From assembly GCF_002149035.1 (NCBI RefSeq), contig NZ_NGFP01000013.1, positions 1-50,858 on the forward strand: DNA of 50,858 bases, read 5' to 3'. Within the stretch, counting starts at the first letter, position 1, and each line of letters opens with the position of its first letter. Below the pieces are notes generated by a model that worked only from the letters and a program-made list of their open reading frames with translations, was not told where the DNA came from and did not search any database. The DNA comes from Streptosporangium minutum (lineage in GTDB: Bacteria > Actinomycetota > Actinomycetes > Streptosporangiales > Streptosporangiaceae). The translations under genes and the position numbers were made by a program. This document shows, one piece after another, positions 22,599 through 40,387 of this stretch.

Positions 22599-23837
22599 GT
22601 GGAGCAGATGACGGCGCCTTTCGAGTGGACCCCCGACGCCCGCGAGCTGGCCGATCTGGAGCTGCTGCTCTCCGGCGCCTTCCAGCCGCTGACGGGCTTC
22701 CTGACCTCAGCGGACGCGCACGCGGTGGACGAGCACGGCACGCTGGCGGACGGCACTCCGTGGCCCGCGCCCGTGACGCTCGCCCTGCCCGACGACCACC
22801 CCGCCGCGCCCGGCGACCGCATCACGCTCCGTGACCCCGAGGGCGCCGCGCTGGCCGTGCTGACCGTCACCGAGCGGGCGGACGGCTCCGTCGCCGGCCC
22901 GCTGGAAACGCTGGACGCGCCGGAGCACGGGCCGTTCGCCCGGCTGCGCCGTACTCCCGCCGAGGTCCGCAAGGAACTGGCCGGCCGGGAGGTGCTGGCG
23001 GTCACCATGCGCGGGCCGCTGGACGACCTGGAGGAGATCAGGGCGACCGCCGAGGAGCTGGACGCGGCGATCCTGCTGCTCCCGCTGGCCTTCGGCGAGG
23101 CGGGCCCCGCGGTGGTCCGCGCCGCGCTCAAGGCCCGCGACCGGCTGCCCGAGGGCACGCTCGTGACCGTGGTGCCCCTCGCGCCCCGGCACGAGCCCAG
23201 CATCGACCTGGAGCTGCGCGAGCACGTGGCGGAGGCCTACGGCGCGACGGAGCACCTGGCCGGCCCCGAGCCCGTGACGCTCCCCGGGCCGCCGCACCGG
23301 CGGGGACTGGTGGTCTTCCTCACCGGCCTGTCGGGCTCCGGCAAGTCCACCGTCGCGCGAGGGCTGCGGGACGCGCTGCTGGAGCGCGGCAGCCGTACGG
23401 TCACCTATCTCGACGGCGACGTGGTCCGTCACCTGCTGTCGGCGGGGCTGAGCTTCTCCAAGAAGGACCGTGACCTCAACATCCGCCGGATCGGGTTCGT
23501 CGCCGCCGAGGCCGCCAGGCACGGCGGTCTGGCGATCTGCGCGCCCATAGCCCCCTACGCCGCCACCCGCGACGAGGTCCGCGCGATGGTCGAGGCCGTC
23601 GGCGCCGACTTCCTGCTCGTCCACGTGTCCACGCCGCTCGCCGAGTGCGAGCGCCGCGACCGCAAGGGGCTCTACGCCAAGGCCCGGGCCGGGATCATCC
23701 CCGAGTTCACCGGCGTCTCCGACCCCTACGAGGAGCCCGACGACGCCGACCTGGTCGTCGACACCACCTCGATCAGCGTGGACCGGGCCGTCCAGCAGGT
23801 GCTGGATCCGCTGATCCGGGGAGGGTGGGTCCGTTGA
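22599..23837 (+). CDS. cysC: adenylyl-sulfate kinase with degenerate sulfurylase-like N-domain
   Basis: A 412-aa protein. Residues ~230-412 are a complete APS kinase, which makes PAPS from APS and ATP: Walker A GLSGSGKSTVARGL, DGDVVRHLLSAGLSFSKKDRD, and the lid region KGLYAKARAGIIPEFTGV. The first ~225 residues begin like the PUA-type domain of ATP sulfurylase (LLLSGAFQPLTGFL) but lack its catalytic HxGH-type motif, so this part is probably regulatory or structural. ATP sulfurylase activity is supplied by CysN/CysD at 35.8-38.1 kb. Start GTG 22599, or ATG 22608, which has GGAG close by. With the three sulfotransferase genes downstream, PAPS here probably serves sulfation. Confidence 0.9.
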   Translation: MEQMTAPFEWTPDARELADLELLLSGAFQPLTGFLTSADAHAVDEHGTLADGTPWPAPVTLALPDDHPAAPGDRITLRDPEGAALAVLTVTERADGSVAGPLETLDAPEHGPFARLRRTPAEVRKELAGREVLAVTMRGPLDDLEEIRATAEELDAAILLLPLAFGEAGPAVVRAALKARDRLPEGTLVTVVPLAPRHEPSIDLELREHVAEAYGATEHLAGPEPVTLPGPPHRRGLVVFLTGLSGSGKSTVARGLRDALLERGSRTVTYLDGDVVRHLLSAGLSFSKKDRDLNIRRIGFVAAEAARHGGLAICAPIAPYAATRDEVRAMVEAVGADFLLVHVSTPLAECERRDRKGLYAKARAGIIPEFTGVSDPYEEPDDADLVVDTTSISVDRAVQQVLDPLIRGGWVR

Positions 23838-23936
23838 GGCGCGAGTACGGCAGCGCCGACCCGGGGAGGACACGCCCGTCGAGAGGCGAGTACGGCAGCG
23901 CCGATCCGGGGAGGGCACGCCCGTCGAAGCGCGACC
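23813..23936. repeat. 45-bp minisatellite spanning the cysC stop codon
   Basis: Units at 23813-23857, 23858-23902 and a partial third at 23903-23936. Units 1 and 2 share the end gcgagtacggcagcgcc; units 2 and 3 share ggggagg(g/a)cacgcccgtcga. The first unit contains the last codons and stop of cysC. Confidence 0.85.
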
Positions 23937-23978
23937 ACAGGACCGTGCACGCGGCCGTCGAGGAAAGGTGAACGACCG

Positions 23979-24932
23979 ATGGGCATCGACTTCCCCCTCG
24001 CGGCCGGATCGTTCTTCGTCGCGATCGTCGTCGGCCTGACCGGCATGGGCGGCGGCGCGCTCATGACGCCGATGATGATGCTGTTCTTCAACGTGCCGCC
24101 CCTGGCGGCCGTCTCCAGCGACCTGGTCGCCTCGGCCGTGATGAAGCCCGTGGGCGGGGCCGTCCACATGCGCCGGGGCACCGTCAACCTGCGGCTGGTC
24201 GGCTGGCTGTGCGCGGGATCGGTGCCCGCGGCCTTCTGCGGGGTGCTCGTGGCCCGGGCGTTCGGGGACGGCGAGCAGATCCAGCAGACGATCAAGTACG
24301 CCCTGGGCGTCGCGCTGCTGCTGGCCGTCGCGGGCCTGGTCGCCAAGGCCTGGCTCTCGCGGCGCGAGGGGGAGGTCTCGACCGACCTCGGTGAGATCGT
24401 CGTGCGCCCATTTCCGACCTTACTGGTCGGTACAATCGGGGGCCTGGTCGTCGGCATCTCGTCCGTGGGCTCGGGGTCTCTGATCATCGTGGCGCTGCTC
24501 GCGCTCTACCCCGCGCTGAAGGCCAACCAGCTCGTCGGCACCGATCTGGTCCAGGCCGTCCCGCTGGTCGTCTCGGCCGCCCTCGGGCACCTGCTGTTCG
24601 GCGACTTCCAGCTCGACGTCACCATCTCGCTGCTGGCCGGCTCGATCCCCGGCGTCTACCTGGGCGCGCGGATCTCGGCCCGGGCTCCCGGCGGGATCAT
24701 CCGGGCGCTGCTCGCGGTGGTGCTGCTGGCGTCGGCGCTGAAACTCCTCGGCGTGGGCAACACGGCCACGCTCTGGATCCTGGCCGGCGCCGTGGCTGCG
24801 GCCGCCGCCGGGTGGTCACTGCTCAGGGACCGGGGTCGCGCGGAGGTAGGGGTCGCGGGCGAGGTCGGAGAAGGTCCTCAGGCCGCCGGGAGTGGTGTCG
24901 AAACGGGTGTCCCCTCGCGGCGCCCGCGGTGA
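23979..24932 (+). CDS. TauE/SafE family permease
   Basis: A 317-aa polytopic membrane protein with about eight hydrophobic segments and the two half-repeats of the TauE/SafE family (VGLTGMGGGALMTP near the N terminus; VGISSVGSGSLIIVALLALYP in the second half). Family members move sulfite, sulfoacetate and other organosulfur or sulfate-related anions. Placement directly after APS kinase suggests sulfate or sulfite transport connected to sulfation, in either direction; this is inference. Start ATG 23979 has GAGGAAAGG upstream. The 3' end overlaps the convergent glycosidase gene by 117 bp, and the last ~45 residues are hydrophilic, possibly an extension. Confidence 0.85.
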   Translation: MGIDFPLAAGSFFVAIVVGLTGMGGGALMTPMMMLFFNVPPLAAVSSDLVASAVMKPVGGAVHMRRGTVNLRLVGWLCAGSVPAAFCGVLVARAFGDGEQIQQTIKYALGVALLLAVAGLVAKAWLSRREGEVSTDLGEIVVRPFPTLLVGTIGGLVVGISSVGSGSLIIVALLALYPALKANQLVGTDLVQAVPLVVSAALGHLLFGDFQLDVTISLLAGSIPGVYLGARISARAPGGIIRALLAVVLLASALKLLGVGNTATLWILAGAVAAAAAGWSLLRDRGRAEVGVAGEVGEGPQAAGSGVETGVPSRRPR

Positions 24933-25928
24933 GTCGAAGTAGACCAGCGCCTTGATCTGGGGGTAGCGCCGCATCTCCTCGCGCACCGAGGAGAAGAACG
25001 ACTCCTTGAACCCGGGCCGGCCGCGGCGCTCGAACACGCCCCATTCGGCGATCATGAAGGGCTTGCCGGGGAAGCGCGACTGCATCCAGCGGTAGAACCC
25101 CGGCCACCCGGCGAACTCCTCGCGGGTCTTGTTGACCAGCCCGTCGAAGGTCTCCACCCTGTCGTCGGCATACGGGTCCATCGCCACCCAGTCGACCACG
25201 TCGTCACCGGGGTAGAGCCTCTCGAACCACGGCTTGGCGGCCCAGTTGGGCGCGCCCATGTAGGTCATGACCGTGACCGCGTTCCGGACGCCCCGCTGCC
25301 GCAGGCGCAGCACCACGTGCCGGAACATCGCGGAGTAGTCCTCGGCGGTCATCCCCGAGCCCGGCGCCTCGCGCACGTCGTTCTCCGGCTCGTGGTGCAC
25401 GGTCAGGAAGAACCTCTCGGGGAAGCTCTTCAGGACGTAGTCGGCCAGGCGGTCGATCCGCTGGTCCAGCGCACCCCCGGCGATCTCCGCCCAGGTCCGG
25501 TCGGAGGACGGCTTCCAGTTGATCAGCAGGAGCCTGCGGCCCGCGGGGTCGCGCGCGATCTTCCGCTCCTCGGGGGTCGGGAAGAGCTCCGGGCCCCGGT
25601 GGTAGACGTGCATGATGGCGGCCGGGCGGCCCATGCGCCCCTCGGCCCGCTCCAGCGCCCGCCCGGGCCGCCTGCCGGTGAAGATCTCCGGCGCGATCCC
25701 CCACCACGCCCCGCACGAGGGGATGAGCTTCACGGTGACCTCGCAGGCGGCCCCCGACGGGCGGATGCCCAGCAAACCGTTGACCCGGGCGGCGGCGCGT
25801 TCCGGCGACTCCGCGGAGACCGCCGCGGGCTGAGCGCACGCGCCCATTCCCAGGACCAGGACGAGACCTGATCCGCCGATTCTGGCCTTGCGGGAAATTA
25901 TCCCTAAAGTGGCATTTATCCGATGCAA
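24816..25928 (-). CDS. GH26-like secreted glycosidase lipoprotein
   Basis: A 370-aa exported protein with a (beta/alpha)8 glycosidase look. HHEPENDV carries a candidate acid/base glutamate and FMIAEWGVFE the nucleophile glutamate, in the order of family GH26 (mannanase/glucanase-like). The N terminus has a basic region, a hydrophobic stretch (GGSGLVLVLGMGAC) and a likely lipidated Cys. I place the start at TTG 25928, after GAGG at 6 nt, because it gives a normal signal length; GTG 25982 (GGGAGG nearby) is possible but makes a long hydrophilic leader. It is divergent from the polysaccharide operon and may trim or release that polymer (inference). Codon 8 is a rare TTA. Confidence 0.75.
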   Translation of the reverse strand: MHRINATLGIISRKARIGGSGLVLVLGMGACAQPAAVSAESPERAAARVNGLLGIRPSGAACEVTVKLIPSCGAWWGIAPEIFTGRRPGRALERAEGRMGRPAAIMHVYHRGPELFPTPEERKIARDPAGRRLLLINWKPSSDRTWAEIAGGALDQRIDRLADYVLKSFPERFFLTVHHEPENDVREAPGSGMTAEDYSAMFRHVVLRLRQRGVRNAVTVMTYMGAPNWAAKPWFERLYPGDDVVDWVAMDPYADDRVETFDGLVNKTREEFAGWPGFYRWMQSRFPGKPFMIAEWGVFERRGRPGFKESFFSSVREEMRRYPQIKALVYFDSPRAPRGDTRFDTTPGGLRTFSDLARDPYLRATPVPEQ

Positions 25929-26124
25929 CGGTTCCTCGCAGACACTCCGCTTGCACGTTTCTTGACTTTCTCCGGAGCACACCCTCCCACCCTCCGGACG
26001 TGCCATGTCACGGACTTTGCCGGTCCGTGCCGCAGCCGACCGGCAAGAGGCGGGAAATGTCGGATAAACGATAGTTATCGCACCGTGATTAGCAGGATCA
26101 ATCTGAAGAAAATCTTGTGTAATG

Positions 26125-26148
26125 GGTCGGGGAAATGGCGACCCGACC
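26125..26148 (+). promoter_or_regulatory. hairpin in polysaccharide operon promoter region
   Basis: A perfect 7-bp inverted repeat, GGTCGGG / CCCGACC, with a 10-nt spacer, just upstream of a TATAGT. It could be an operator or, if transcription starts earlier, a leader hairpin. A second short dyad, CGATAGTTATCG, lies at 26069-26080. The surrounding DNA is AT-rich for this genome. Confidence 0.35.
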
Positions 26149-26154
26149 TATAGT
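26149..26154 (+). promoter_or_regulatory. candidate -10 element for the wzz-wzy operon
   Basis: TATAGT fits the TAnnnT -10 consensus and lies 48 bases before the Wzz-like start. No good -35 is seen at 16-18 nt, so an activator may be needed. Weak evidence. Confidence 0.3.
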
Positions 26155-26201
26155 TCCTAGGGTTCTGAAGCGCCGACGCCGCCCGAAAGGGACCGCAACG
26201 T

Positions 26202-27482
26202 ATGAGCCTGCCACCGGACACCCCCGTCCGCCGCTCCGGTGGAGATCTGGCGGACTACGTCTCCCTCGTCCGCCGCAGATGGCCGATCCTGCTGTTCTTC
26301 CTCGCGGCCGGGATCGGCGGCGGCGTCGCCCTGCTCCGGCTCACCCCGCCCGCCTACACCGCCACCGCCCAGGTGCTGGTCTCCCCGACGGGCCTCTCCG
26401 AACAGACCAACCAGGTCACCAACCGGCAGCGCGAGCCGCTCAACCTCGACACCGAGGTGCAGATCGCCCAGTCCGCCGTGGTCGCCGAGAAGGCCCGGGC
26501 CGTGCTCAAGAGCACGCCGGAGCCCGTCGACGTCTCCGTGCCGCCCAACACCTCGGTTCTGGAGATCTCCTACACCGCCGCCGACCCGCACACCGCGGCC
26601 GCCGGGGCCGGCGCCTACGCGCAGGCCTATCTGGCCAACCGGGAGGAGTCCGCCACGCAGGCACTGGACGCCCAGCTCAAGGCACTCCTCGCCAAGCTCA
26701 AGCAGGTCAACGCCAGCCTGGTCACGGTGGCGGGCACGCTCCCCGGCCTGGCGAGGGGGACGGCGGAGCGGACCATCGCCCTGCAGCGGCAGACCGTGCT
26801 CAGCCGCCAGATCTACAACCTCACGGTCAGGTACGACGCGCTCAGGACCGTCCCCGTCACCCCGGGTTCGGTGATCAGCGAGCCGGTCGCCCCGGCCGAG
26901 CCCGGCGCGCCCAGCCCTCCCCTGCATCTCGGCAGCGGCCTCATGATCGGCCTGCTCGCCGGGGTCGGCGCCGCCTGGGTCCGCGACCGCCTCGACACCA
27001 GGATCCGCACGGGCTCCGATCTCAGGCGCCTGACCGGCCTCGACGTCCTCAGCGCGGAGGAGATCGGAGAGCCGGCGGACCGCGCGGGGAGCGCCGTGCT
27101 GCTGATCGCCCTGCCGGGGACGTCCTCGCGTGACGTGGCGCAGGCCGTACGCGGTCTCAACGAGCGCGGGATCCCCGTGCTCGGCGCACTCGCCGTCCCA
27201 CCGGCCGGGCCGTCGCCCGTCCCGGGCGCCCAGCCCCCGGAGAGCGGACGGACCTCGGAGAGCGGGCGGACTCCGAGGACGGGACGGATCTCGAAGACCG
27301 GCCGCGTGCCGAAGACCCGCCGGACCCGCGCCCCCGCCCCGACTGCCGCCTCCGCCTCCGCGCCCGTCGCCTCCGACGGGACGGCCCACCCCGTCACCGG
27401 AGGCCGGCCCGCGCCGGCCCAGGCTCCCCTGCCGACGCAGCCGCACCCGCCCGCGGCCGACAAGATGGTCTTCCCGACGTGA
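26202..27482 (+). CDS. Wzz-type polysaccharide chain-length/co-polymerase protein
   Basis: A 426-aa membrane protein. A Wzz domain (YVSLVRRRWPILLFFLAAG as first membrane helix) is followed by a ~200-residue extracytoplasmic helical region and a second membrane segment near residue 250 (LMIGLLAGVGAAWVRDRLD). After it, DLRRLTGLDVL and then VLLIALPGTSSRDVAQAVRG resemble the start and end of the cytoplasmic tyrosine kinase (BY-kinase) that is often fused or partnered, but no P-loop is present. The tail is Pro/Ala-rich with degenerate SGRT/TGRI hexapeptide repeats and no Tyr cluster. It regulates polymer length with the Wzy-like protein, whose start overlaps this stop (GTGA). ATG 26202 has AAGGGA upstream. 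Confidence 0.85.
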   Translation: MSLPPDTPVRRSGGDLADYVSLVRRRWPILLFFLAAGIGGGVALLRLTPPAYTATAQVLVSPTGLSEQTNQVTNRQREPLNLDTEVQIAQSAVVAEKARAVLKSTPEPVDVSVPPNTSVLEISYTAADPHTAAAGAGAYAQAYLANREESATQALDAQLKALLAKLKQVNASLVTVAGTLPGLARGTAERTIALQRQTVLSRQIYNLTVRYDALRTVPVTPGSVISEPVAPAEPGAPSPPLHLGSGLMIGLLAGVGAAWVRDRLDTRIRTGSDLRRLTGLDVLSAEEIGEPADRAGSAVLLIALPGTSSRDVAQAVRGLNERGIPVLGALAVPPAGPSPVPGAQPPESGRTSESGRTPRTGRISKTGRVPKTRRTRAPAPTAASASAPVASDGTAHPVTGGRPAPAQAPLPTQPHPPAADKMVFPT

Positions 27483-28771
27483 GAGGCCTCCACCCGGCGG
27501 CCTGGCCGATCGCCGCGCTGCTCATCGGCTACCCCCTCTGGTGGGCACTGGGCTTCGGCGGCCTGTCGGTGATCGTGCTGGCCCCGCCGATGGCACTGGC
27601 CCTGTGGCGGCGGCGGCCGATCAGGGCACCGCGCGGGTTCGGGCTCTGGCTGCTGCTGCTGGCGGGCTACCTGGTCAGCGCGCTCATGCTCGACGAGATG
27701 CCGCCGGACACCTACGGCGAGCTCGGCGCCGGACGGGTGATCGGCTACCTGATGCGCCTGTTCCTCTACGTCTCACTGATGATCATGGTCCTCTACCTGG
27801 GCAACCTGACCGAGCAGGAGTTGCCGCAGCTCACCCTCGTACGGATGCTCGGCGTGCTGTTCGTCACGACCGTCGCCGGCGGCCTGCTCGGCGTGCTGGT
27901 CCCCCGGGCCGACTTCACCTCGCCGGTCGAGCGGATCCTGCCCCACTGGATCAGCGGCAACTCCTTCGTCCACAACCTGATCCACCCCACCGCCGCCCAG
28001 GTGCAGAAGGTGCTCGGCCACTCCTCCCCGCGCCCGGAAGCCCCGTTCGAGTGGGCCAACGCCTGGGGCAGCAACATCTCGGTGCTGCTCATCTGGTTCG
28101 TGGTCGGCTGGTGGGTGTACGGCGGGCCGCGCAGGCGCCTGGCCGTGGTCCCGCTGATCGCGCTGGCCGCCGTCCCGATCGTCTACTCCCTCAACCGCGG
28201 CCTCTGGATCGGCCTGGGCATCGCCACCGTCTACCTGTTCCTGCGCCTGGGCGCGAGGGCCCGCGTCGTGGTCCTCTCCGCCACCGCCTGCGGCGCACTG
28301 GTGTTCTTCCTCAGCCCGCTGCAGGCGATGGTGGCCCAGCGGCTGGACAGCCCGCACAGCAACGACATCCGCGCCTTCACCGTCACGGCGACCGTCGCGG
28401 CTGCGGCCACCTCACCGATCATCGGCTACGGCAACACCCGCAACGCGATGGGCAACCACCGCACGGTCACCACCGGGAAGACCGGCTGGTGCGACGTCTG
28501 CGGCCACCCTCCGCTGGGCAGCGACGGCCAGCTCTGGCACCTGATGATCACGCAGGGATTCGTCGGAGCCGCCCTCTACGTGGCGTTCTTCGCCGGGGCC
28601 GTCCGCCGCCACTGGCGCGACCGGAGCCCGATCGGCCTGGCCGGGGTCCTGGTGATGATCCTCACCCTGCTCTACATGTTCGTCTACGACGGGCTGGTCA
28701 CGCCGCTCAACCTGTATCTGATCTCATTCGCGCTGCTCTGGAGGAACTCAATGGCGAGCGGGGCCGCATGA
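27479..28771 (+). CDS. Wzy-like O-antigen/exopolysaccharide polymerase
   Basis: A 430-aa polytopic membrane protein with about eleven hydrophobic segments and a long extracytoplasmic stretch near residues 140-200, as in the Wzy/WaaL O-antigen ligase superfamily. NRGLWIGLGIATVYLFLRLG resembles the conserved arginine-containing segment of WaaL/Wzy proteins. These enzymes join lipid-linked repeat units outside the membrane. GTG 27479 overlaps the Wzz-like stop by four bases, and the gene's own stop overlaps the next start (ATGA), so translation of the operon is coupled. A ligase role instead of polymerase cannot be excluded. Confidence 0.8.
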   Translation: MRGLHPAAWPIAALLIGYPLWWALGFGGLSVIVLAPPMALALWRRRPIRAPRGFGLWLLLLAGYLVSALMLDEMPPDTYGELGAGRVIGYLMRLFLYVSLMIMVLYLGNLTEQELPQLTLVRMLGVLFVTTVAGGLLGVLVPRADFTSPVERILPHWISGNSFVHNLIHPTAAQVQKVLGHSSPRPEAPFEWANAWGSNISVLLIWFVVGWWVYGGPRRRLAVVPLIALAAVPIVYSLNRGLWIGLGIATVYLFLRLGARARVVVLSATACGALVFFLSPLQAMVAQRLDSPHSNDIRAFTVTATVAAAATSPIIGYGNTRNAMGNHRTVTTGKTGWCDVCGHPPLGSDGQLWHLMITQGFVGAALYVAFFAGAVRRHWRDRSPIGLAGVLVMILTLLYMFVYDGLVTPLNLYLISFALLWRNSMASGAA

Positions 28772-29667
28772 ACGACGCCCGCGCCCGGCTGCGCTACCTC
28801 GACGAGACCGTCGGCCTGCTGTTCCCCGGCTCCGGCGGGCGCCGGCCGTACAGCGTGCTGCCCCACCCCCTGCTCCCCCGCAGGCTGGCGCCCCGCGCGT
28901 GGTGGCATCCCGGCAGGAAGGTCATGGTCGCCTCGGATGAGGGCACGATCGAGACCTATCTCAGCGAGGTGCTGAGCGCCCCCGTCAGAATCGTGCTGCA
29001 CGTCCGGCCCGCCCTGCGGGCCAACCGGAAGCCGGTCCTGGAGGCCCACGCCCCGGACGGGCTGGCCGCCTTCGTGAAGATCGGCGACACCGACCGGAGC
29101 CGCGAGCTCATCGCGAACGAGGCGCGGGCGCTCGACCTGCTCGCCGGCGTGGCGCTGAAGACCGTCGTCCCCCCGGCCGTGCTGCACCACGGCTCCTGGC
29201 GCGGTCTGTCCGTGCTCGCGCTGACCCCGCTCCCGGTACGGCGAGGCCGGATCCCCGAAGACCTGCTCATCGGGGCGGTCGGCGAGATCAGCCGGATATC
29301 CGGCCACGGGTCCGCCTGGCACGGCGACTTCTCGCCGTGGAACATCGCCCGCGGAGCGGACGGGCGGCTGCTGGTCTGGGACTGGGAGCGGTTCGCCACC
29401 GGCGTGCCACTCGGCTTCGACGCCGTCCACCACTTCTTCCAGCGCGCCCTGCGCCGCACCCGCCCGGCGACCGCGGCACGGGCCTGCGTGGCGCAGGCCC
29501 TGCCGATCCTGGCCCCGTTCGGGCTGTCGGCGGCGGAGGCCAGGCTGACCGCGATCCGCTACCTGGTCGCGCTGGCCGACCGGCACGCGGCCGACGGTCA
29601 CGCCCCGCTCGGCCCGGCCGAGCACTGGCTCAACCCCGCCGTCGACTTCGAGGAGGCCCTGACGTGA
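28768..29667 (+). CDS. aminoglycoside-phosphotransferase-fold kinase
   Basis: A 299-aa soluble protein with the C-terminal lobe of the APH/choline-kinase fold: catalytic loop HGDFSPWNI (near residue 190) and the metal-binding WDWERF about 15 residues later. The N-lobe has FVKIGD with a plausible ATP-binding lysine, followed by the helix glutamate in NEARALDLL. The fold phosphorylates small hydroxylated substrates such as sugars or choline. Here it sits between the polymerase and a sulfotransferase with four-base overlaps on both sides, so it likely phosphorylates a sugar or precursor of this polymer (inference). Start ATG 28768 overlaps the wzy-like stop. Confidence 0.75.
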   Translation: MNDARARLRYLDETVGLLFPGSGGRRPYSVLPHPLLPRRLAPRAWWHPGRKVMVASDEGTIETYLSEVLSAPVRIVLHVRPALRANRKPVLEAHAPDGLAAFVKIGDTDRSRELIANEARALDLLAGVALKTVVPPAVLHHGSWRGLSVLALTPLPVRRGRIPEDLLIGAVGEISRISGHGSAWHGDFSPWNIARGADGRLLVWDWERFATGVPLGFDAVHHFFQRALRRTRPATAARACVAQALPILAPFGLSAAEARLTAIRYLVALADRHAADGHAPLGPAEHWLNPAVDFEEALT

Positions 29668-30521: not shown

Positions 30522-30603
30522 CCTCCCCCGGGGACGCCCCCGCCGAACAGTGCGCACCCCGACAGGGCGACACCAACACCTCCGCCTCAGGACGGGGGCC
30601 GGC

Positions 30604-32848: not shown

Positions 32849-32851
32849 ACG

Positions 32852-33691
32852 TCAGGAGAACAGCCGCCGGAGCAGGCAGGCGGTGAGCAGCCAGAGCGCG
32901 AACGGCAGGTCGTGGAGCAGATATCGGCGGGCCAGCCGGCCGGGCTCGTTGAGCAGCCGGAAGAGCCACTCCAGCCCGGCTCGCTGCATCCACTGGGGCG
33001 CCCGGCGCACCGCACCGGCGGCGAACGCGATGGCCGAGCCGCATCCGACGAACCAGGTGCCGGGCAGGTCCTTGCGGAGCATCCCGATGAGCCGGTCCTG
33101 CTTGGGGAAGCCGAGCCCGACGAAGACCAACCGGGGCCCGGCTGCCACCACCGCGTCCCTGACCTTCGCGTAGCTCTCGGAGTCGGCCTCGAACCCGTAC
33201 GGCGGGGCGTCGGTCCCGGCGACGAGCAGCCCGGGATGGCGGGCGGTCAGCCGGCCGGCCGCCTGCGTGGCCACCCCCGGCGGCCCGCCCAGCAGGTAGA
33301 TCGGATAGCGGTAGAAGGCGGCGGCCTCCGCCAGGGACCAGATCAGATCGGCGCCGGCCACCCGGCTGGGGACGGGCGTGCCGAGCAACTTCGCCGCCCA
33401 CACCAGCGGCATGCCGTCGGCCACCACGAGGTCGGCCTCCTCGATGATCTCGCGCACCTCGGAGTCGCGGGCGGCGGCCCAGCTGATATCCACGTTCGGG
33501 GTGACGAGGTGACCGCCCTCACCGCGTTTCAGCGCGTCGACCACGTGGTCGACGACCTCGCTCTCGGTCATCGGATCGATCGCCAGACCGGCTACGTGCA
33601 CCCTGCGGCGGAGCCGCCTGCGGGTGGCCTTGTCCGGTCGCGTCCGCTGGCGCGGGACGCTCAACGTCTCATGGACGGTCCTGAACGCCAT
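32852..33691 (-). CDS. WecG/TagA/CpsF family (GT26) glycosyltransferase
   Basis: A 279-aa glycosyltransferase of the WecG/TagA/CpsF family, which adds ManNAc, ManNAcA or related sugars to a lipid-linked first sugar. Typical motifs: HLVTPNVDISWAA, VVADGMPLVWAAKLLG, RVAGADLIW, IYLLGGPPGVA and VFVGLGFPKQD. A basic N-terminal extension of ~30 residues (ATRRRLRRR) and a C-terminal hydrophobic/basic end (LWLLTACLLRRLF) suggest membrane association. ATG 33691 overlaps the preceding GT2 stop (ATGA). It is the last gene of the minus-strand operon. Confidence 0.9.
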   Translation of the reverse strand: MAFRTVHETLSVPRQRTRPDKATRRRLRRRVHVAGLAIDPMTESEVVDHVVDALKRGEGGHLVTPNVDISWAAARDSEVREIIEEADLVVADGMPLVWAAKLLGTPVPSRVAGADLIWSLAEAAAFYRYPIYLLGGPPGVATQAAGRLTARHPGLLVAGTDAPPYGFEADSESYAKVRDAVVAAGPRLVFVGLGFPKQDRLIGMLRKDLPGTWFVGCGSAIAFAAGAVRRAPQWMQRAGLEWLFRLLNEPGRLARRYLLHDLPFALWLLTACLLRRLFS

Positions 33692-34632
33692 CAGATGCCG
33701 TGCCCGCGGTGATGCAGCGTGCTGAGCACGGCCTGGGCCGACACCAGACCCGCCGCCACGGCGAGCGCGAGGGGCGCGCGGGGTTCGCCGTGCCGCGCGG
33801 CGAACGCCCGCCAGGCCCAGCGGCCCGCCTCCCGCCGCCGGCCGAGAGCGGCGTGGTGGAAGGCGAGTTGACCGTAGACCCGCGCCGCGCCGCGCGGATC
33901 CACGGCCAGATCAGGATGCCGGGCGAGCATCCACTCCAGCCCGGCGATTCGATCGGCCCAGCGGGTCACGTACAGGGAACCGCCCCAGCGGACGTGTACC
34001 AGGGGACGGTCGACATGCACGATCGGGTGGCGCGCGGCGGCGCGCAGCGCCAGGTCCCAGTCCTCGTTCTGGCCGTTGGGGGCGCTCTCGTCGACCCAGA
34101 GGGTGCCCCTCCGGAACAGGAACGTCGAGGAGTGGACCATCACCATGCGCGAGCGCACCAGATGGGCACGGGTGACCAGGTCGGTCCCGGCGAGACGGGG
34201 AACGCGGCGGGAGCCGTACTCGACCTCGATGGCGCAGCTGGAGAACTCCGCAGCCGGCTCCGCCTCCAGGGCGGCGACCTGGGCGCTGAGCTTGCCGGGC
34301 AGCCACTGGTCATCGTCGTCGCAGAAGGCCACCAGGTCCGTGCCGAGCGCCGCGATGCCCGTGTTGCGCGCCCCGGGCAGGCCGGGGCTGAGCCGGTTGG
34401 CCACCACCCGGACGCCGCGCGCCCCCGCCGTCTGCCTCCGGGCCGCCGGAAGCCGGTCGGCCAGCAGGCCGGCCACCTGGTCGACGACCGAGACCGGGTC
34501 GCCGTCGTCCACGACGATGACGACCTCCACGGCACCGGAATGATCCTGACCGAGCGCGGCGCGCGTGGCCGAGCGCAACTGGTCGGGCCGACGCCCTCTT
34601 GTGGGGATGACCACACCTACCGATGGACTCAT
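33691..34632 (-). CDS. GT2-family glycosyltransferase
   Basis: A 313-aa GT-A fold glycosyltransferase: VGVVIPTRGRRPDQLRSA at the N terminus, VEVVIVVDDGDP, PGARNTGIAAL and the metal-binding FCDDDDQWLPGKL motif near residue 110, then NGQNEDWDLALRAA with the catalytic-base region. It should add a nucleotide-sugar-derived residue to the growing lipid-linked unit. The C-terminal ~70 residues are helical and rich in Ala/Arg. Start ATG 34632 overlaps the upstream sulfotransferase stop, and its own stop overlaps the WecG-like start, so the three are translationally coupled. Confidence 0.88.
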   Translation of the reverse strand: MSPSVGVVIPTRGRRPDQLRSATRAALGQDHSGAVEVVIVVDDGDPVSVVDQVAGLLADRLPAARRQTAGARGVRVVANRLSPGLPGARNTGIAALGTDLVAFCDDDDQWLPGKLSAQVAALEAEPAAEFSSCAIEVEYGSRRVPRLAGTDLVTRAHLVRSRMVMVHSSTFLFRRGTLWVDESAPNGQNEDWDLALRAAARHPIVHVDRPLVHVRWGGSLYVTRWADRIAGLEWMLARHPDLAVDPRGAARVYGQLAFHHAALGRRREAGRWAWRAFAARHGEPRAPLALAVAAGLVSAQAVLSTLHHRGHGI

Positions 34633-35594
34633 GCGAGCCTCCCGCGATAGCCGTACTTGTGCATGAGCGGCCAGGTCAGTGCGGCGACCAGGCGTTGGTG
34701 CCGGCCTGAGGCGGCGGTGCGCCAGCCCTCGTCCGGGGTCAGCCCGATCCGGCCGACCGTGAAGCGCATGGGGTTGCCCGAGGCCGTGTGGGCCATCGAG
34801 AGCTCGGCCCCGCCGTCGGCGAGGAAGTCCAGGCGGGGCCGGAGCCCGATCCTGGCGGCCAGGCGCCTGAGCGTGTCGGCGGGGGCTCCGAGGAGGTCCT
34901 CGTAGCGGATCCGGGTGACGGAGACGCCCCGGCGTGCCAGGAGCTCCAGGCTGAGGTTCTGGGCCAGCCAGTGCAGTGAGGTCCGGGCCGGTGACCAGCG
35001 GGTCATGGGGCGGCCGTCCTCGGGGCGCGCGACCCGCCGGTGCCAGGAGTGCGCGACCGCCCGGGGGTCGCGGACGACGTGCACGACATGCACGTCGACT
35101 CCGGCGGCGGCCAGGCAGAAGGCCAGGGAGGCGTGCTTGCTGGAGTCGATCACGATCGGGCACCCCGCGACCTCGCCCGCCGCGTCGTACAGGCGGCGAT
35201 GGGCGGCGGCGTACTCTCTCAGCTCGGCGATGCCGGAGGACGGCCAGCCGCCGTCGACCGGCCGCTCCTCGGTGAGGAGCTGGGCCAGGAGGGGGATGCG
35301 CCGGGTGCGGTCCACCCGGCGCCGGAGTGCCAGCACCCGGTGGGCCAGCCCCTCCGACCAGCCGCCGAACGCGCGCTCGCCGACCTTGCGCCAGAACGGG
35401 CACGAGCCGAACGGCTCGCGGCATCCGCACGCCTCGTCCGCCAGCACACCCCGCGCCCAGAGGTGAACGACCTCTCCGAGCGGCACGACGCCGGGCACCT
35501 CACCGAGGAGGCGCTCCAGCAGAGTGGTGCCGCTACGGCCGAGGCCGCCCACGAAAACGACCCTGGCGGGGGTGGGACTGTCAGACACAGGCAC
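34629..35594 (-). CDS. PAPS-dependent sulfotransferase (third of three)
   Basis: A 321-aa sulfotransferase. PAPS loop: FVGGLGRSGTTLLERLLG (about residues 13-30); 3'-phosphate site: VHVVRDPRAVAHSWHRR. CGCREPFGSCPFWRKV carries a Cys cluster seen in several Sulfotransfer_3-type actinobacterial proteins, and IVIDSSKHASL and RIRYEDLL are also present. GTG 35594, with a second GTG two codons later; no strong ribosome site. About 225 bases separate it from cysN, and I see no gene there. It opens the sulfotransferase-GT2-WecG trio, all with ATGA overlaps. Confidence 0.9.
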   Translation of the reverse strand: MPVSDSPTPARVVFVGGLGRSGTTLLERLLGEVPGVVPLGEVVHLWARGVLADEACGCREPFGSCPFWRKVGERAFGGWSEGLAHRVLALRRRVDRTRRIPLLAQLLTEERPVDGGWPSSGIAELREYAAAHRRLYDAAGEVAGCPIVIDSSKHASLAFCLAAAGVDVHVVHVVRDPRAVAHSWHRRVARPEDGRPMTRWSPARTSLHWLAQNLSLELLARRGVSVTRIRYEDLLGAPADTLRRLAARIGLRPRLDFLADGGAELSMAHTASGNPMRFTVGRIGLTPDEGWRTAASGRHQRLVAALTWPLMHKYGYRGRLA

Positions 35595-35819
35595 GAATCC
35601 TTACCCGACGGATACGGAACGTACCGACAATAGCGCGGAGAGTAACCAAGGAGTCAGGGAACAGACAAAGGATCTACCTGGGAAGCGTCCGGCCCGGACC
35701 GCGCCACCCGGCGACCACCCCGTCCCGGCAGCACGACGGCCCCCTCCCCCGCGCCGTTGTTGTCGGCGGCGTCGGCGGAGAGGGCCGGCGTGGTGTCTGC
35801 GGTGACGCCCGGGACGGGC

Positions 35820-37082
35820 CTACTTCGCCTCGACGATCATCCCGGCGCCGACGGTGTTGCTGGTGGACTCGTCCACGAGGATGAAACCGCCGGTGAGGCG
35901 GTTCCTCGCGTAGTCGTCCACGAACAGCGGCTGGGTGATGCGGAGCGAGACACGGCCGATCTCGTTCAGGCCGAGCGACTGGGCCGACTCGTCACGGTGC
36001 AGGGTGTTGACGTCCAGCCGGTAGTGCAGGTCGCGGACCAGGGCGCGGGCCGTCCGGGTGGTGTGCTTGATGGTCAGCTTGGTGCGCGGCCCCAGCTTGG
36101 TGACGTCGCTCATCCAGCAGATCATCGCCTCCAGCTCCTGGGCCACGTGCGGCTGGTTGTTCGGACGGCAGATCATGTCGCCACGCGAGATGTCGATGTC
36201 GTCCTCCAGCCGCAGGGTCACCGACATCGGCGCGAACGCCTCGTCCACCGGCCCGTCGAAGGTGTCGATCGACGCGATCCGCGTGATCAGGCCCGAGGGC
36301 AGGTGCATCACCTCGTCACCCGGCTTCAGCACGCCGCCGGCGACCTGGCCCGCGTATCCCCGGTAGTCGTGGAGGGCGGGATCGGTGGCCCGCTGCGGCC
36401 GGATGACGTACTGGACGGGGAAACGCACGTCGACCAGGTTCCGGTCGGAGGCGATGTGCACGTGCTCCAGGTGGTGCAGCAGGGAGGAGCCGTTGTACCA
36501 GGGCATGCTCTCCGAGCGCGACACCACGTTGTCGCCGTGCAGCGCCGAGATCGGGATGAACGTCAGGTCGGGCGCGTTCAGCTTGGCGGCGAAGGAGGTG
36601 AACTCCTCACGGATCTCCTCGAACCGCTCCTGTGAGTAGTCGACCAGGTCCATCTTGTTCACGGCCAGCACCAGGTGCGGGACACGCAGCAGCGTGGTCA
36701 GGAACGCGTGCCGCCGCGACTGCTCCAGCACGCCCTTGCGCGCGTCGATCAGGACGATCGCCAGGTCGGCCGTGGACGCGCCGGTGACCATGTTCCGGGT
36801 GTACTGGATGTGCCCGGGGGTGTCGGCGATGATGAACTTGCGCTTGGGCGTGGCGAAGTAGCGGTAGGCCACGTCGATCGTGATGCCCTGCTCCCGCTCG
36901 GCCCGCAGGCCGTCGGTGAGCAGCGACAGGTCGGTGTATTCGGTGCCGCGGTCGCGGGAGGTGCGCTCGACCGCCTCAAGCTGGTCTTCGAAGATCGCCT
37001 TGGAGTCGAAGAGCAGCCGCCCGATGAGGGTCGACTTTCCGTCGTCGACGCTTCCCGCCGTGGCAAAGCGAAGGATGTCCAT
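35820..37082 (-). CDS. cysN: sulfate adenylyltransferase large subunit (GTPase)
   Basis: A 420-aa EF-Tu-like GTPase that drives APS synthesis by CysD. G1 is AGSVDDGKSTLIGRLL, the switch region EREQGITIDVAYRYF, G3 DTPGHIQYTRNM, G4 NKMDL, followed by two beta-barrel domains. It ends without a fused APS kinase domain, consistent with the separate cysC at 22.6 kb. Start ATG 37082, with GGAG about 10 nt upstream. A 118-bp gap separates it from cysD. There is no cysH, sulfite reductase or siroheme gene nearby, which is unusual for an assimilation operon and fits supply of PAPS to the adjacent sulfotransferases. Confidence 0.96.
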   Translation of the reverse strand: MDILRFATAGSVDDGKSTLIGRLLFDSKAIFEDQLEAVERTSRDRGTEYTDLSLLTDGLRAEREQGITIDVAYRYFATPKRKFIIADTPGHIQYTRNMVTGASTADLAIVLIDARKGVLEQSRRHAFLTTLLRVPHLVLAVNKMDLVDYSQERFEEIREEFTSFAAKLNAPDLTFIPISALHGDNVVSRSESMPWYNGSSLLHHLEHVHIASDRNLVDVRFPVQYVIRPQRATDPALHDYRGYAGQVAGGVLKPGDEVMHLPSGLITRIASIDTFDGPVDEAFAPMSVTLRLEDDIDISRGDMICRPNNQPHVAQELEAMICWMSDVTKLGPRTKLTIKHTTRTARALVRDLHYRLDVNTLHRDESAQSLGLNEIGRVSLRITQPLFVDDYARNRLTGGFILVDESTSNTVGAGMIVEAK

Positions 37083-37200
37083 CAGAACTGCTCTCCAGAG
37101 GTCGTACGGCTTTCGCGGGAAGACTGCGTCGGAAGTGGCCCTCGGCTCTCGCCCGGCCGGCCCTCCACGAGGACCGATCGGCGCGACAGAAGATCACGCA

Positions 37201-38115
37201 CTAGAAGTAGCCCTCCTTCTTGCGGTCTTCCATGGAGGCCTCGGAGGCCCGGTCGTCGGCGCGGGTGGCACCGCGCTCGGTGATCCGGGTGGCGGCGATC
37301 TCGCTGATGATCTCCTCGACCGTCGCGGCGGTCGACTGGACGGCCCCGGTGCAGGTCACGTCGCCGACGGTGCGGTAGCGGACGACGCTCTCGAAGAGCT
37401 GCTCGTCCTCGTCGCGGGTGATGAACTCGCTGTCGGCCAGCAGCATGCCGTCACGCTCGAACACCTTGCGCGTGTGCGCGTAGTAGATCGACGGGATCTC
37501 GATGCCCTCACGCCGGATGTAGTCCCAGATGTCGAGCTCGGTCCAGTTGGACAGCGGGAACACCCGGATGTGCTCACCCTTGCGGATCTTGGAGTTGTAG
37601 AGGTTCCACAGCTCCGGCCGCTGGCTCTTCGGGTCCCACTGGCCGAACTCGTCGCGGAAGGAGAACACCCGCTCCTTGGCGCGGGCCTTCTCCTCGTCGC
37701 GGCGGGCGCCGCCGAACACCGCGTCGTACTCGTTGTCCTCGATCGCGTCCAGCAGCGTGGTGGTCTGCAGCCGGTTGCGGGAGGCCCGGCGGCCGGTCTC
37801 CTCGGCCACCCGGCCGGCGTCGATGGAGTCCTGGACGCTGGCCACGACCAGCCGTGCGCCCAGCTCCTCGGCCCGGCGGTCGCGGAACTCGATGACCTCG
37901 GGGAAGTTGTGCCCGGTGTCCACGTGCATCAGCGGGAAGGGGATCGGCGCCGGCCAGAACGCCTTCTCTGCGATGCGCAGCATGACGATGGAATCTTTAC
38001 CACCGGAGAAGAGCAGACACGGACGCTCGAACTCGGCCGCCACTTCACGCATGATGTGAATGGCCTCTGCCTCGAGGACATCGAGCTGCGACGTGGTGTA
38101 GTCGCACTGGAGCAT
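37201..38115 (-). CDS. cysD: sulfate adenylyltransferase small subunit
   Basis: A 304-aa PP-loop protein that forms APS from sulfate and ATP. The nucleotide-binding SGGKDSIVMLRIAEKAF, MHVDTGHNFPEVIEFRD, and the C-terminal WTELDIWDYIRREGIEIPSIYYAHTR signature (here in shorter pieces) are all present. The length is that of standard CysD. It lies 20 bp after cysQ and upstream of cysN, in a wbaP-like gene-cysQ-cysD-cysN order on the minus strand. It works as a heterodimer with CysN. Confidence 0.97.
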   Translation of the reverse strand: MLQCDYTTSQLDVLEAEAIHIMREVAAEFERPCLLFSGGKDSIVMLRIAEKAFWPAPIPFPLMHVDTGHNFPEVIEFRDRRAEELGARLVVASVQDSIDAGRVAEETGRRASRNRLQTTTLLDAIEDNEYDAVFGGARRDEEKARAKERVFSFRDEFGQWDPKSQRPELWNLYNSKIRKGEHIRVFPLSNWTELDIWDYIRREGIEIPSIYYAHTRKVFERDGMLLADSEFITRDEDEQLFESVVRYRTVGDVTCTGAVQSTAATVEEIISEIAATRITERGATRADDRASEASMEDRKKEGYF

Positions 38116-38135
38116 CAGACTCTCCTAGCGGGAAT

Positions 38136-38903
38136 TTATCGGTGCAGATCCCGGATTCCAGCGAGCAACGTTGGCGCTAGTCCCGGTAGGGAAACAAGGA
38201 TATCCGGCAATGAGGGGTCGCCCTGGTTATACGTCAGGGGCGAGCCGTCAATGCGGCTGGCGTGGGCTCCTGCGGCGAGGGCCACGGCGACCGGCGCGGC
38301 GGAGTCCCATTCGTACTGGCCGCCGGCGTGCACGTAGGCCTCGACCTCTCCGGTGAGCACCGCGGAGATCTTGGCGCCGGCCGATCCGATCGGGACCAGG
38401 TCGGCGCCGGTGAGGCGGGCCAGGTTCTGGACGAACTCCGGCGGCCGGGTCCGGCTGACCGCGATCCGCGGCCCGGCCTCCGGCCGGACGGCGGGCAGCA
38501 CGGGGGGTTCGAGGGTCGACAGGGTCCGGCCCTGGGCGGGCAGCGCCACCGCCCCGGCGCTCAGCCTGCCGTTCTCCCAGAGCGCCACGTGGACCGCCCA
38601 GTCGCCGCGCCCCTCCTCGGCGAACTCCCGGGTGCCGTCCAGGGGGTCGACGATCCAGACCCGCTCGGCCTTGAGGCGCCGGGGGTCGAGACGCTCTTCC
38701 CGGGTCGCCTCCTCGGACAGCACACTGTCACCCGGACGCAACCGTGCCAGGGCGTCCATCAGGAACACGTGCGCGGAGGCGTCGCCCTCCTTGCGGAGCG
38801 TGGAGGGGTCGGCGAACCCTTCCTTCTCCCGCAGGGCGAGCAGCCTCTCACCGGCCTCCGTCGCCAGGTCCGTGGCGAGAACGTGATCGTCGCGAATCGT
38901 CAT
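38136..38903 (-). CDS. cysQ: 3'(2'),5'-bisphosphate (PAP) phosphatase, CysQ family
   Basis: A 255-aa inositol-monophosphatase-fold enzyme that hydrolyses PAP, the inhibitory by-product of sulfotransferases, to AMP. The metal-binding motif VWIVDPLDGTREFAE and the second motif YEWDSAAPVAVALAAG are intact, with LSEEATREE as the first acidic site. I start at ATG 38903, which overlaps the stop of the sugar-transferase gene (ATGA). A PAP phosphatase coupled to the initiating transferase and followed by CysD/CysN supports a sulfation role for the locus. Inositol monophosphatase activity cannot be excluded from sequence. Confidence 0.9.
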   Translation of the reverse strand: MTIRDDHVLATDLATEAGERLLALREKEGFADPSTLRKEGDASAHVFLMDALARLRPGDSVLSEEATREERLDPRRLKAERVWIVDPLDGTREFAEEGRGDWAVHVALWENGRLSAGAVALPAQGRTLSTLEPPVLPAVRPEAGPRIAVSRTRPPEFVQNLARLTGADLVPIGSAGAKISAVLTGEVEAYVHAGGQYEWDSAAPVAVALAAGAHASRIDGSPLTYNQGDPSLPDILVSLPGLAPTLLAGIRDLHR

Positions 38904-40387
38904 CAGTATGCTCCAGCCCCTCGCGCGACAGCCGACCAAGTCTTCCACAGGATCTGCAGGTCCAGCGTGAGGGACCAATTCTCCACATAACGCAGATCTA
39001 GCCGCACCGATTCCTCCCAAGATAGGTCAGACCGCCCACTTACCTGCCAGAGGCCGGTCATCCCCGGCTTGACCAGCAGCCTGCGCCGGACGTCGTCGCC
39101 GTAGCGGGCGACCTCGTCGGGCAGCGGAGGCCGGGGGCCGACCAGCGACATGTGACCGAGCACCACATTGATCAACTGGGGCAGCTCGTCGAGGGAGTGA
39201 CGGCGCAGCCGGGCGCCCAGCGGGGTCACCCGAGGATCTTTGCGGATCTTGAACAGCACGCCCTGCCCGTCTCCGGCGAGGTCGATCCGCTGCTGCTCGG
39301 CGTCGGCGCCCATCGTCCGGAACTTGTAGATCGTGAACTCGGTGCCGCCCCGGCCCACCCTGGTCTGCCGGAAGAACGCGGGCCCGGGACTCGACATCCG
39401 CACGGCCGCCACCAGGCCGACGAGGAGCGGCAGCAGCGCCACCAGCAGCAGCCCCGCCCCGACCCGGTCGAAGAGGTTCTTGACCACCTGGCGCAGGCCC
39501 GCGATCTCGGGGTGGTCCACGTGCAGCAGCGGCAGCCCGGCCGCCGGGCGGATCGTGATCCGCGGCCCGGCCACCTCCATCAGCGCCGGGGCGACGACCA
39601 GGTCGGTGTCGGTCTTCTCCAGCCGCCAGGCCAGCCGCCGCAGCGCCAGGCCGTCCATCTCCGGGCAGGCCAGCACGGCCACGGTGTCGGCCGCGATCTG
39701 CCCGACCACGAGCGGGACGTCGGAGAGGTCACCCAGGACCGGGACCCCCTCCACGTCGCCCATGCCGTCACGCGGCATGCAGACCCCCACGACCTCCATG
39801 CCGTGGTAGCGCTCCCGGCGGAACCGGCGGATCAGCTCGGCGGTCGCGGCCCGGTGGCCGACCGTCACGACCCGCCGCATGCAGCGCCCGCGCGCCCGCC
39901 TCCGGTGCAGGGAGCGGCGCAGGCCGTAGCGCGCGAGGAGGGTGAGCAGCGTCGTCAGCGGCAGCGCCAGCACCACGTAGCCGCGGGCCACATCGGTCTT
40001 GGTCAGGTAGGCGCCGATGGCGAGGGCGGCGGTGAGCATGAAACCGCACTGGAAGACCCGCTGGAACTCCTCCGGGCCCAGGCCGAACAGGCGGGGCTCG
40101 TAGGCGCGGTTCAGCGCGACCGCGCAGATCCAGACGGCGGGGAGTGCGGCGCTCAACATCACATAGGGGGTGACGTAGGGAGTAACCTCGCCGAAGCGGA
40201 CGAACAGCGCCAGGAAGCCCGCGAGGGAGGCGGAGCCCATGTCGGCGGCGACGGCTCGCGCCCGGTATCCGCGCACCCAGCCCGGCATACGCGGACGGGT
40301 CGCCGGCACCGGTCTCGGCGCCGCCTGGACGACGGTAACGTCGCGCACGCGCTCCCCCTGCGTAGCCATTCGTGGACGGACAGTCAC
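38903..40387 (-). CDS. polyprenyl glycosylphosphotransferase (WbaP/EpsE type)
   Basis: A 494-aa membrane enzyme that starts repeat-unit assembly by moving a sugar-1-phosphate onto undecaprenyl phosphate. Four N-terminal transmembrane segments and a Rossmann-like CoA-binding middle domain (RVVTVGHRAATAELIRRF) precede a fifth hydrophobic segment (GAGLLLVALLPLLVGLVAAVR). The catalytic domain then carries YKFRTMGADAEQQR, LDELPQLINVVLGHMSLVGP and VKPGMTGLWQVSGRSDLSWE. GTG 40387 and ATG 40369 are both possible; neither has a good ribosome site. It is the first gene of the minus-strand polysaccharide/sulfate-activation operon. Confidence 0.92.
   Translation of the reverse strand: MTVRPRMATQGERVRDVTVVQAAPRPVPATRPRMPGWVRGYRARAVAADMGSASLAGFLALFVRFGEVTPYVTPYVMLSAALPAVWICAVALNRAYEPRLFGLGPEEFQRVFQCGFMLTAALAIGAYLTKTDVARGYVVLALPLTTLLTLLARYGLRRSLHRRRARGRCMRRVVTVGHRAATAELIRRFRRERYHGMEVVGVCMPRDGMGDVEGVPVLGDLSDVPLVVGQIAADTVAVLACPEMDGLALRRLAWRLEKTDTDLVVAPALMEVAGPRITIRPAAGLPLLHVDHPEIAGLRQVVKNLFDRVGAGLLLVALLPLLVGLVAAVRMSSPGPAFFRQTRVGRGGTEFTIYKFRTMGADAEQQRIDLAGDGQGVLFKIRKDPRVTPLGARLRRHSLDELPQLINVVLGHMSLVGPRPPLPDEVARYGDDVRRRLLVKPGMTGLWQVSGRSDLSWEESVRLDLRYVENWSLTLDLQILWKTWSAVARGAGAY

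What the first reader, a model, noticed from the sequence alone, without database searches (positions are those of the whole stretch)
22599..40387. An 18-kb locus that looks like a complete sulfated-polysaccharide system in an actinomycete
Seen: initiating sugar transferase, two glycosyltransferases, Wzz-, Wzy- and Wzx-like proteins, three distinct sulfotransferases with intact PAPS loops, APS kinase, CysN/CysD, CysQ, a TauE/SafE permease and a secreted GH26-like glycosidase, in contiguous and largely overlapping genes. Known: PAPS is made by CysND plus CysC, used by sulfotransferases, and PAP is removed by CysQ. Inferred: the locus makes, sulfates, exports and trims an acidic surface polymer. 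Sulfated polysaccharides are well known from algae and animals but rarely described in Gram-positive soil actinomycetes.
Basis: partly seen in the sequence, partly recalled or inferred. Interest (0 to 1): 0.85.

Follow-up and report, generated by a model that had tools for sequence, protein, structure and literature searches.

The report
Sulfated spore-matrix polysaccharide locus in Streptosporangium
A soil bacterium carries a gene set that most likely builds a sulfate-coated sugar polymer for the matrix around its spores; the set matches one recently shown by gene deletion to be needed for normal spore sacs in a distant relative, and its core recurs in many actinomycete families.

Summary
Window 21.8-40.4 kb carries a Wzx/Wzy polysaccharide locus with three sulfotransferases and genes to make PAPS and remove PAP. 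The genus is Streptosporangium; all 16 sampled genomes of it, the own one included, carry the locus's short APS kinase. Gene order is nearly that of the wps-1 cluster of Actinoplanes missouriensis (one gene pair inverted, 35-62% identity), whose deletion mutants form squashed sporangia and release few spores (PMC13390465; sulfate predicted, not shown). New here: in 394 genomes of the class all 58 strong Wzy hits lie within 10 kb of this sulfotransferase family; the fused 'ATP sulfurylase/APS kinase' has a degenerate sulfurylase half and is the only APS kinase found in both genomes. The published AMIS_7390 deletion, called unexpected, then reads as a PAPS-null mutant: genetic evidence that sulfation itself matters. 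Against a dedicated system: two relatives keep the sulfate-activation genes beside pth without the polymer genes, and genera without sporangia carry the locus. No sulfate has been measured.

The parts
21794..22528 (+). g0: SAM-dependent methyltransferase, probably part of the locus (WpsF of wps-1 is also predicted to be one)
22608..23837 (+). g1: APS kinase with N-terminal PUA-like, degenerate and shortened ATP-sulfurylase half; sole APS kinase found in the genome
23979..24932 (+). g2: TauE/SafE permease (accessory; present in 14 of 20 related loci)
24816..25928 (-). g3: probably exported GH26-like glycosidase with HHEP and AEWG motifs that fit the two catalytic Glu of GH26 (roles recalled); start uncertain, up to 26006
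   Evidence: each motif in 73 of 75 relatives, lipobox-like pattern in 66 of 75
26202..27482 (+). g4: Wzz-like chain-length protein (WpsK)
27479..28771 (+). g5: Wzy-like polymerase (WpsJ)
28768..29667 (+). g6: small-molecule kinase fold (WpsI)
29664..30521 (+). g7: sulfotransferase A (WpsH), related to heparan sulfate sulfotransferases
30550..31908 (+). g8: Wzx-like flippase (WpsG)
31905..32807 (+). g9: sulfotransferase B; no separate match in the Actinoplanes stretch
32852..33691 (-). g10: WecG/TagA glycosyltransferase GT26 (WpsC)
33691..34632 (-). g11: GT2 glycosyltransferase (WpsA)
34629..35594 (-). g12: sulfotransferase C (WpsB)
35820..37082 (-). g13: CysN, GTPase subunit of ATP sulfurylase
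37201..38115 (-). g14: CysD, catalytic subunit of ATP sulfurylase; only copy found in the genome
38136..38903 (-). g15: CysQ-like PAP phosphatase
38903..40387 (-). g16: initiating polyprenyl-phosphate sugar transferase
   Evidence: TIGR03025 6.2e-123, over its cut-off

Best explanation
A wps-1-type Wzx/Wzy pathway that makes a sulfated extracellular polysaccharide, most likely a component of the spore or sporangium matrix. g16 starts a repeat unit on undecaprenyl phosphate; GT26 (g10) and GT2 (g11) extend it to about three sugars; sulfotransferases g7, g9 and g12 add sulfate in the cytoplasm, where PAPS is; kinase g6 and methyltransferase g0 may further decorate or cap it; Wzx (g8) flips it, Wzy/Wzz (g5, g4) polymerise it, and the exported GH26 enzyme trims it. 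CysND makes APS; g1, an APS kinase whose ATP-sulfurylase half looks dead, makes PAPS; CysQ removes PAP. Shown here: gene content, homology to wps-1, tight Wzy-sulfotransferase linkage, a single APS kinase. Shown by others in A. missouriensis: sporangium defects of mutants. Inferred: sulfate on the polymer, sugar number, order of steps, matrix role in Streptosporangium.
For: Domains and intact motifs. Homologous, nearly colinear order in A. missouriensis L130: GT2 50%, STC 54%, WecG 53%, Wzx 45%, STA 56%, kinase 37%, Wzy 40%, Wzz 35%, APS kinase part 62%. Published single-gene mutants: wpsA, C, G, H, I, J, K squashed sporangia, wpsF distorted, wpsB and wpsE milder, AMIS_7390 severe, no visible growth difference. 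58 of 58 Wzy hits of 240 bits or more have the STA family within 10 kb, 51 within 2 kb; 56 of 59 STA hits of 300 bits or more lie within 10 kb of a Wzy hit. Kinase directly upstream of STA (gap -16 to 236 bases, same strand) in 21 of 21 loci examined, which were picked for strong Wzy hits. AMIS_7390's counterpart is the only APS kinase found in G569 and g1 the only one in G000; both genomes have a CC...CxxC...ECGLH-type CysH, so cysteine should not need PAPS (meaning of the pattern recalled). dN/dS of the three sulfotransferases 0.20-0.34 against two congeners.
Against: No chemical evidence of sulfate in any of these polymers. AMIS_7390 was not switched on with wps-1 at day 3, and the authors could not complement the cluster deletions. 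AMIS_7390 still scores over the Pfam ATP-sulfurylase cut-off across half that domain (44.7 against 24.3 bits), so 'dead' rests on lost motifs. Of 19 related genomes whose APS kinase is not of the short form, 6 have no STA at 1e-20 and 2 only a distant one; two of these (G030, G032) keep pth-cysQ-cysD-cysN with no polymer genes in the 20 kb fetched. Nonomuraea, Microbispora and Microtetraspora, which lack true sporangia (recalled), carry the locus. STA has Gly where heparan sulfotransferases have the catalytic Glu.
Confidence: 0.75

Rival explanations
1. The polymer is real and sulfated but is a vegetative capsule or hyphal coat; the sporangium phenotype of Actinoplanes is one use among several.
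For: Strong Wzy and STA hits occur together in 55 genomes of 11 families of the class sample, and named hits include genera without sporangia (morphology recalled).
Against: In A. missouriensis wps-1 is activated early in sporangium formation and mutants grow normally.
Confidence: 0.4
2. The cysN-cysD-cysQ and apsK genes are housekeeping sulfur-assimilation neighbours and the polymer cassette merely sits inside them.
For: CysD is the only one found in the genome and no PF01747 sulfurylase was found; in G030, with no STA at 1e-20, the order pth-cysQ-cysD-cysN-tauE-apsK is compact and uninterrupted.
Against: With an APS-reductase-type CysH an APS kinase is not needed for cysteine, so apsK should serve sulfotransferases; deletion of its wps-1 counterpart gives a sporangium defect without a visible growth defect. 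Both readings can hold: an old block shared with the polymer.
Confidence: 0.35
3. The sulfotransferases act on a glycolipid or small metabolite, as in mycobacterial sulfolipids, and the polymer is not sulfated.
For: Sulfotransferase folds do not tell the acceptor; STA lacks the catalytic Glu of glycosaminoglycan sulfotransferases.
Against: Linkage of STA with this Wzy in 58 of 58 strong hits, overlapping genes, and the same squashed-sporangium class for wpsH and wpsJ deletions.
Confidence: 0.1

Closest known systems
wps-1 cluster AMIS_7280-AMIS_7380 plus AMIS_7390, Actinoplanes missouriensis (PMC13390465)
   Same: GT2, GT26, Wzx, heparan-type sulfotransferase, second sulfotransferase, kinase-like, Wzy, Wzz and fused APS kinase in nearly the same order; GH26 and methyltransferase genes in both
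   Different: The GT2/sulfotransferase C pair is inverted. The window adds a third sulfotransferase, CysND, CysQ, an initiating sugar transferase and TauE; its APS kinase has a shorter sulfurylase remnant (409 versus 506 aa); its GH26 is closer to the gene next to AMIS_7390 (41%) than to WpsE (24%). A DUF4262 gene was not seen in the window locus
Synechan (xss) cluster of Synechocystis (PMC8205485; listing and start of abstract seen only)
   Same: Sulfotransferases in a bacterial exopolysaccharide cluster; product reported as sulfated
   Different: Cyanobacterial; gene content not compared here
Two-domain APS kinase of Thiobacillus denitrificans (PDB 3cr8)
   Same: Closest solved relative of AMIS_7390; sulfurylase-like half without activity, by its paper's title, seen in the reference list of PMC13213808 (passages only)
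   Different: The window protein has lost more of the core
Heparan sulfate 3-O- and N-sulfotransferases
   Same: STA profile matches them at about 1e-22 to 1e-20 with PAPS-binding motifs
   Different: Gly60 in place of their catalytic Glu, invariant in 21 of 21; acceptor unknown

Membership tests
wps-1-type locus | Homologous Wzz, Wzy, kinase, STA, Wzx, WecG, GT2, second sulfotransferase and APS kinase clustered in the same order | tested here: met
   with one difference: the GT2/sulfotransferase C pair is inverted. L130 taken as A. missouriensis because its DUF4262 span 27-152 equals the published WpsD span and the contig is 8,773,466 bases, the length recalled for that chromosome
wps-1-type locus | Needed for sporangium formation | not testable with these tools
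   shown only in A. missouriensis
Wzx/Wzy-dependent polysaccharide pathway | Initiating transferase, glycosyltransferases, flippase, polymerase, chain-length protein together | tested here: met
   Wzy_C hit is below its curated cut-off but the protein is homologous to WpsJ
Sulfated polysaccharide producer | Sulfate esters on the polymer | not testable with these tools
   no chemistry available
PAPS-dependent sulfotransferases | 5' and 3' PAPS-binding motifs | tested here: met
   STA GxQRxGTT and RDPxxRAxSA invariant in 21 of 21; STB GLPRSGTSW with R140 and S148 in 17 of 17; STC GxGRSGxT and RDxRxVAxSW in 18 of 18. Motif roles recalled
Heparan sulfate sulfotransferases | Catalytic Glu two residues before the conserved His of the HFFD motif (recalled) | tested here: not met
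   Gly at that column in 21 of 21
Bifunctional ATP sulfurylase/APS kinase | Intact ATP sulfurylase core (QxRN and GRDxAG motifs; recalled) | tested here: not met
   neither motif in the proteins; 0 of 18 aligned keep QxRN; PF01747 has no hit in the own genome. AMIS_7390 keeps a partial PF01747 match
Two-domain APS kinase | Sulfurylase-like half plus intact APS kinase domain | tested here: met
   activity itself not testable
APH / fructosamine-kinase fold (g6) | Kinase fold with HGDxxxxN and DWE catalytic residues | tested here: met
   fold only, substrate unknown

The most novel reading that the evidence does not exclude
Many actinomycete families share a sulfated matrix polysaccharide whose Wzy polymerase, sugar kinase and sulfotransferase are inseparable; sulfate supplied by an APS kinase with a dead sulfurylase half is structurally required for spore packaging, so the published AMIS_7390 mutant is in effect a sulfation-null bacterium, and bacteria have their own counterpart of a glycosaminoglycan matrix.
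Probability: 0.5. Interest if true: 0.78.

Novelty: new variant of a known kind. Interest (0 to 1): 0.6.

Why it matters
It turns one predicted cluster in one species into a system found across many families, names which genes always travel together, and gives a simple genetic reading of an unexplained mutant. If sulfate is confirmed, sulfated matrix polymers would be a normal feature of many soil actinomycetes, with new sulfotransferase families and a ready source of sulfated polysaccharides.

Tried and rejected
Rejected: that g1 makes APS itself (sulfurylase motifs and much of the core are gone). Rejected: that the hit on contig C46 is a second CysD or CysH; it is a protein with an SGGKDS motif but without their other features (judged by eye). 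Rejected: that the PUA-APS kinase is a local oddity; it is genus-wide in the sample. Not resolved: a second, more distant STA clade (E about 1e-69 to 1e-84) is common in genus g94 of family f39, so the 228 of 250 genomes mix two clades; its loci were not examined. Not resolved: substrate of g6, number of sugars, names of the unnamed families. A weak WbdD match (E 0.1; Foldseek 3.7e-4) suggested chain capping by kinase plus methyltransferase; kept as an idea only.

Limits of counts: the tool scored at most 4 and 6 candidates per genome in the rows I saw. The fused-kinase genome G010 was fetched only as 8.5 kb (L054) and not analysed. In one search the 19 of 80 loci of 20 kb or less were left out of the tally. 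In one search genes outside 0.85-1.25 of the window length were left out (kept: 76 kinases, 79 STA, 73 STB, 59 STC, 75 GH26). One row (L131) was dropped from the sulfotransferase C alignment. One regular expression for the STB 3' motif was badly written (10 of 73); the patterns there matched 76 and 77 of 79 STA, 70 of 73 STB (5' motif), 51 and 58 of 59 STC. Alignments A3, A5 and A7 were used for the motif statements instead. One genome search, the second structure job and three paper searches were not used.
Full report
What is there. The window is the first 50,858 bases of contig C35 (67,514 bases) of a 9.58 Mb genome.

Where it comes from. The best named match is Streptosporangium canum (98% identity in sulfotransferase A), followed by other Streptosporangium species and by Planomonospora, Planobispora, Planotetraspora, Acrocarpospora, Microtetraspora, Nonomuraea, Sphaerisporangium, Sinosporangium, Microbispora and Spongiactinospora (540 of 576 pattern matches encode a relative, best 80 kept). 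Genome G011, which the tool puts in the window's genus, has the S. canum contig by its length. The window's own species may have been left out of that list.

How conserved it is. The short PUA-APS kinase is present nearly end to end at 78% identity or more in 22 of 60 genomes of the relatives sample: 16 of 16 of the genus, own genome included, and 6 others of the family. In 20 fetched loci, g1, g4, g5, g6, g7, g9 and g10 are in 20 of 20, g3 and g8 in 19 of 20, TauE in 14 of 20; g11, g12 and CysN in 19 of 20, the missing one (L052) being a contig end. Of 61 named loci longer than 20 kb, g3-g7 are in 61, g8 and g9 in 60, g1 in 59, g0 in 58; later genes are limited by the 10 kb flank. The neighbour mfd was found upstream in 56 of 61, and pth downstream in 16 of the 20 (four stretches end before it), so the locus keeps its chromosomal place. 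Sulfotransferase dN/dS is 0.20-0.34 in two comparisons.

The Actinoplanes link. PMC13390465 (abstract, introduction, wps-1 domain section, single-mutant section and discussion read, other passages by word search) describes wps-1 and AMIS_7390 in A. missouriensis. I found the same region in genome G569, whose contig is 8,773,466 bases long, the length I recall for that species; its DUF4262 gene has the published span 27-152. Window proteins map onto it in nearly the same order; the GT2 and sulfotransferase C genes are inverted as a pair, and the GH26 gene that matches best stands on the far side of the APS kinase. Sulfotransferase A is WpsH, C is WpsB; B, CysN, CysD, CysQ, TauE and the initiating transferase have no separate match in that 20 kb. 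In the paper, deletion of wpsA, C, G, H, I, J or K gave squashed sporangia, wpsF distorted ones, wpsB and wpsE milder effects, wpsD none, and AMIS_7390 an 'unexpected' severe defect, with no visible growth difference.

A reading of the unexpected mutant. AMIS_7390 and the other fused proteins lack ATP-sulfurylase motifs; 0 of 18 aligned proteins keep QxRN, while the PDB sulfurylase row printed has it. AMIS_7390 does keep a partial PF01747 match over its cut-off; the window protein does not. The closest solved protein is 3cr8, the Thiobacillus denitrificans enzyme whose paper title states absence of ATP sulfurylase activity (title seen in the reference list of PMC13213808). One APS kinase was found in G569, at AMIS_7390's place, and one, g1, in the window's genome. 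Both genomes carry a CysH with the CC...CxxC...ECGLH pattern of iron-sulfur APS reductases (meaning recalled), and CysN with CysD elsewhere in G569 or at the locus here. So PAPS should not be needed for cysteine, and losing this kinase should abolish PAPS and all sulfation while leaving growth intact, which is what was reported. This is inference; the authors read the enzyme as sulfur-amino-acid metabolism, and its transcription did not rise with wps-1 at day 3.

Sulfotransferase and polymerase travel together. In 394 genomes drawn evenly from the class, profile A2 (Wzy) gave 79 hits; all 58 of 240 bits or more have the sulfotransferase A family (225 bits or more) within 10 kb and 51 within 2 kb. 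Of 75 sulfotransferase hits of 225 bits or more, 65 lie within 10 kb of a Wzy hit; of the 59 of 300 bits or more, 56 do, the other three having no Wzy hit on their contig. Weaker Wzy hits mostly lack it: 7 of 21 below 240 bits have it within 10 kb. The 55 genomes with both a Wzy of 240 and an STA of 300 bits or more fall in 11 families. The kinase lies directly upstream of sulfotransferase A in 21 of 21 loci examined.

What speaks against a dedicated system. Of 19 related genomes whose APS kinase is not of the short form, 9 have a strong sulfotransferase A hit, 2 a second-clade hit, 2 only a distant one and 6 none at 1e-20. In G030, which has none, pth, cysQ, cysD, cysN, tauE and apsK stand in a compact row; the window's order is that row with the polymer genes between tauE and cysN and the initiating transferase beside cysQ. 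The polymer cassette is therefore either nested in, or was lost from, an older sulfate-activation block, and CysND is shared with cysteine synthesis. Hits in genera without sporangia (recalled morphology) argue for a wider spore or surface role.

Literature. Searches listed one paper predicting a sulfated polysaccharide from an actinomycete cluster (PMC13390465) and, in the rows I saw (20 of 141, 12 of 23, 8 of 10, all rows in the rest), none whose title or abstract start reports a demonstrated one for these genera. A word search of that paper's main text found no 'conserved', 'homolog' or 'ortholog', so the spread described here seems not to be in it; its supplement was not seen.

Verdict.

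Noticed in passing
L049 (G029:C8) and L107 (G029:C7): One Planomonospora genome lacks Wzx between sulfotransferases A and B but carries a second wps-type locus with its own Wzx; possible sharing of a flippase.
   Followed up: partly
L130 17405-18721 and 7135-8130: A. missouriensis has two GH26 genes around wps-1; the window's GH26 is closer to the one beside AMIS_7390 (41%) than to WpsE (24%).
   Followed up: partly
L045, L046, L047: About 3.6-4.5 kb of extra sequence between sulfotransferase B and WecG in two Streptosporangium and one Microtetraspora genome; content not examined.
   Followed up: no
G025:C118:22156-24916 and C136:23664-26747: One genome of the family carries two arrays of three tandem sulfotransferase-A genes; an assembly artefact is not excluded.
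   Followed up: no
G000:C46:27074-27403: PAPS-reductase-domain protein with an SGGKDS motif that looks like neither CysD nor CysH; possibly of the DndC kind (judged by eye).
   Followed up: no
window 40478-40990: Rv2179c-like exoribonuclease gene between the locus and pth, with no match in some related loci.
   Followed up: no
G000 contigs C117, C279, C68, C1: Five further sulfotransferase-domain matches outside the window that would share the same PAPS supply.
   Followed up: no
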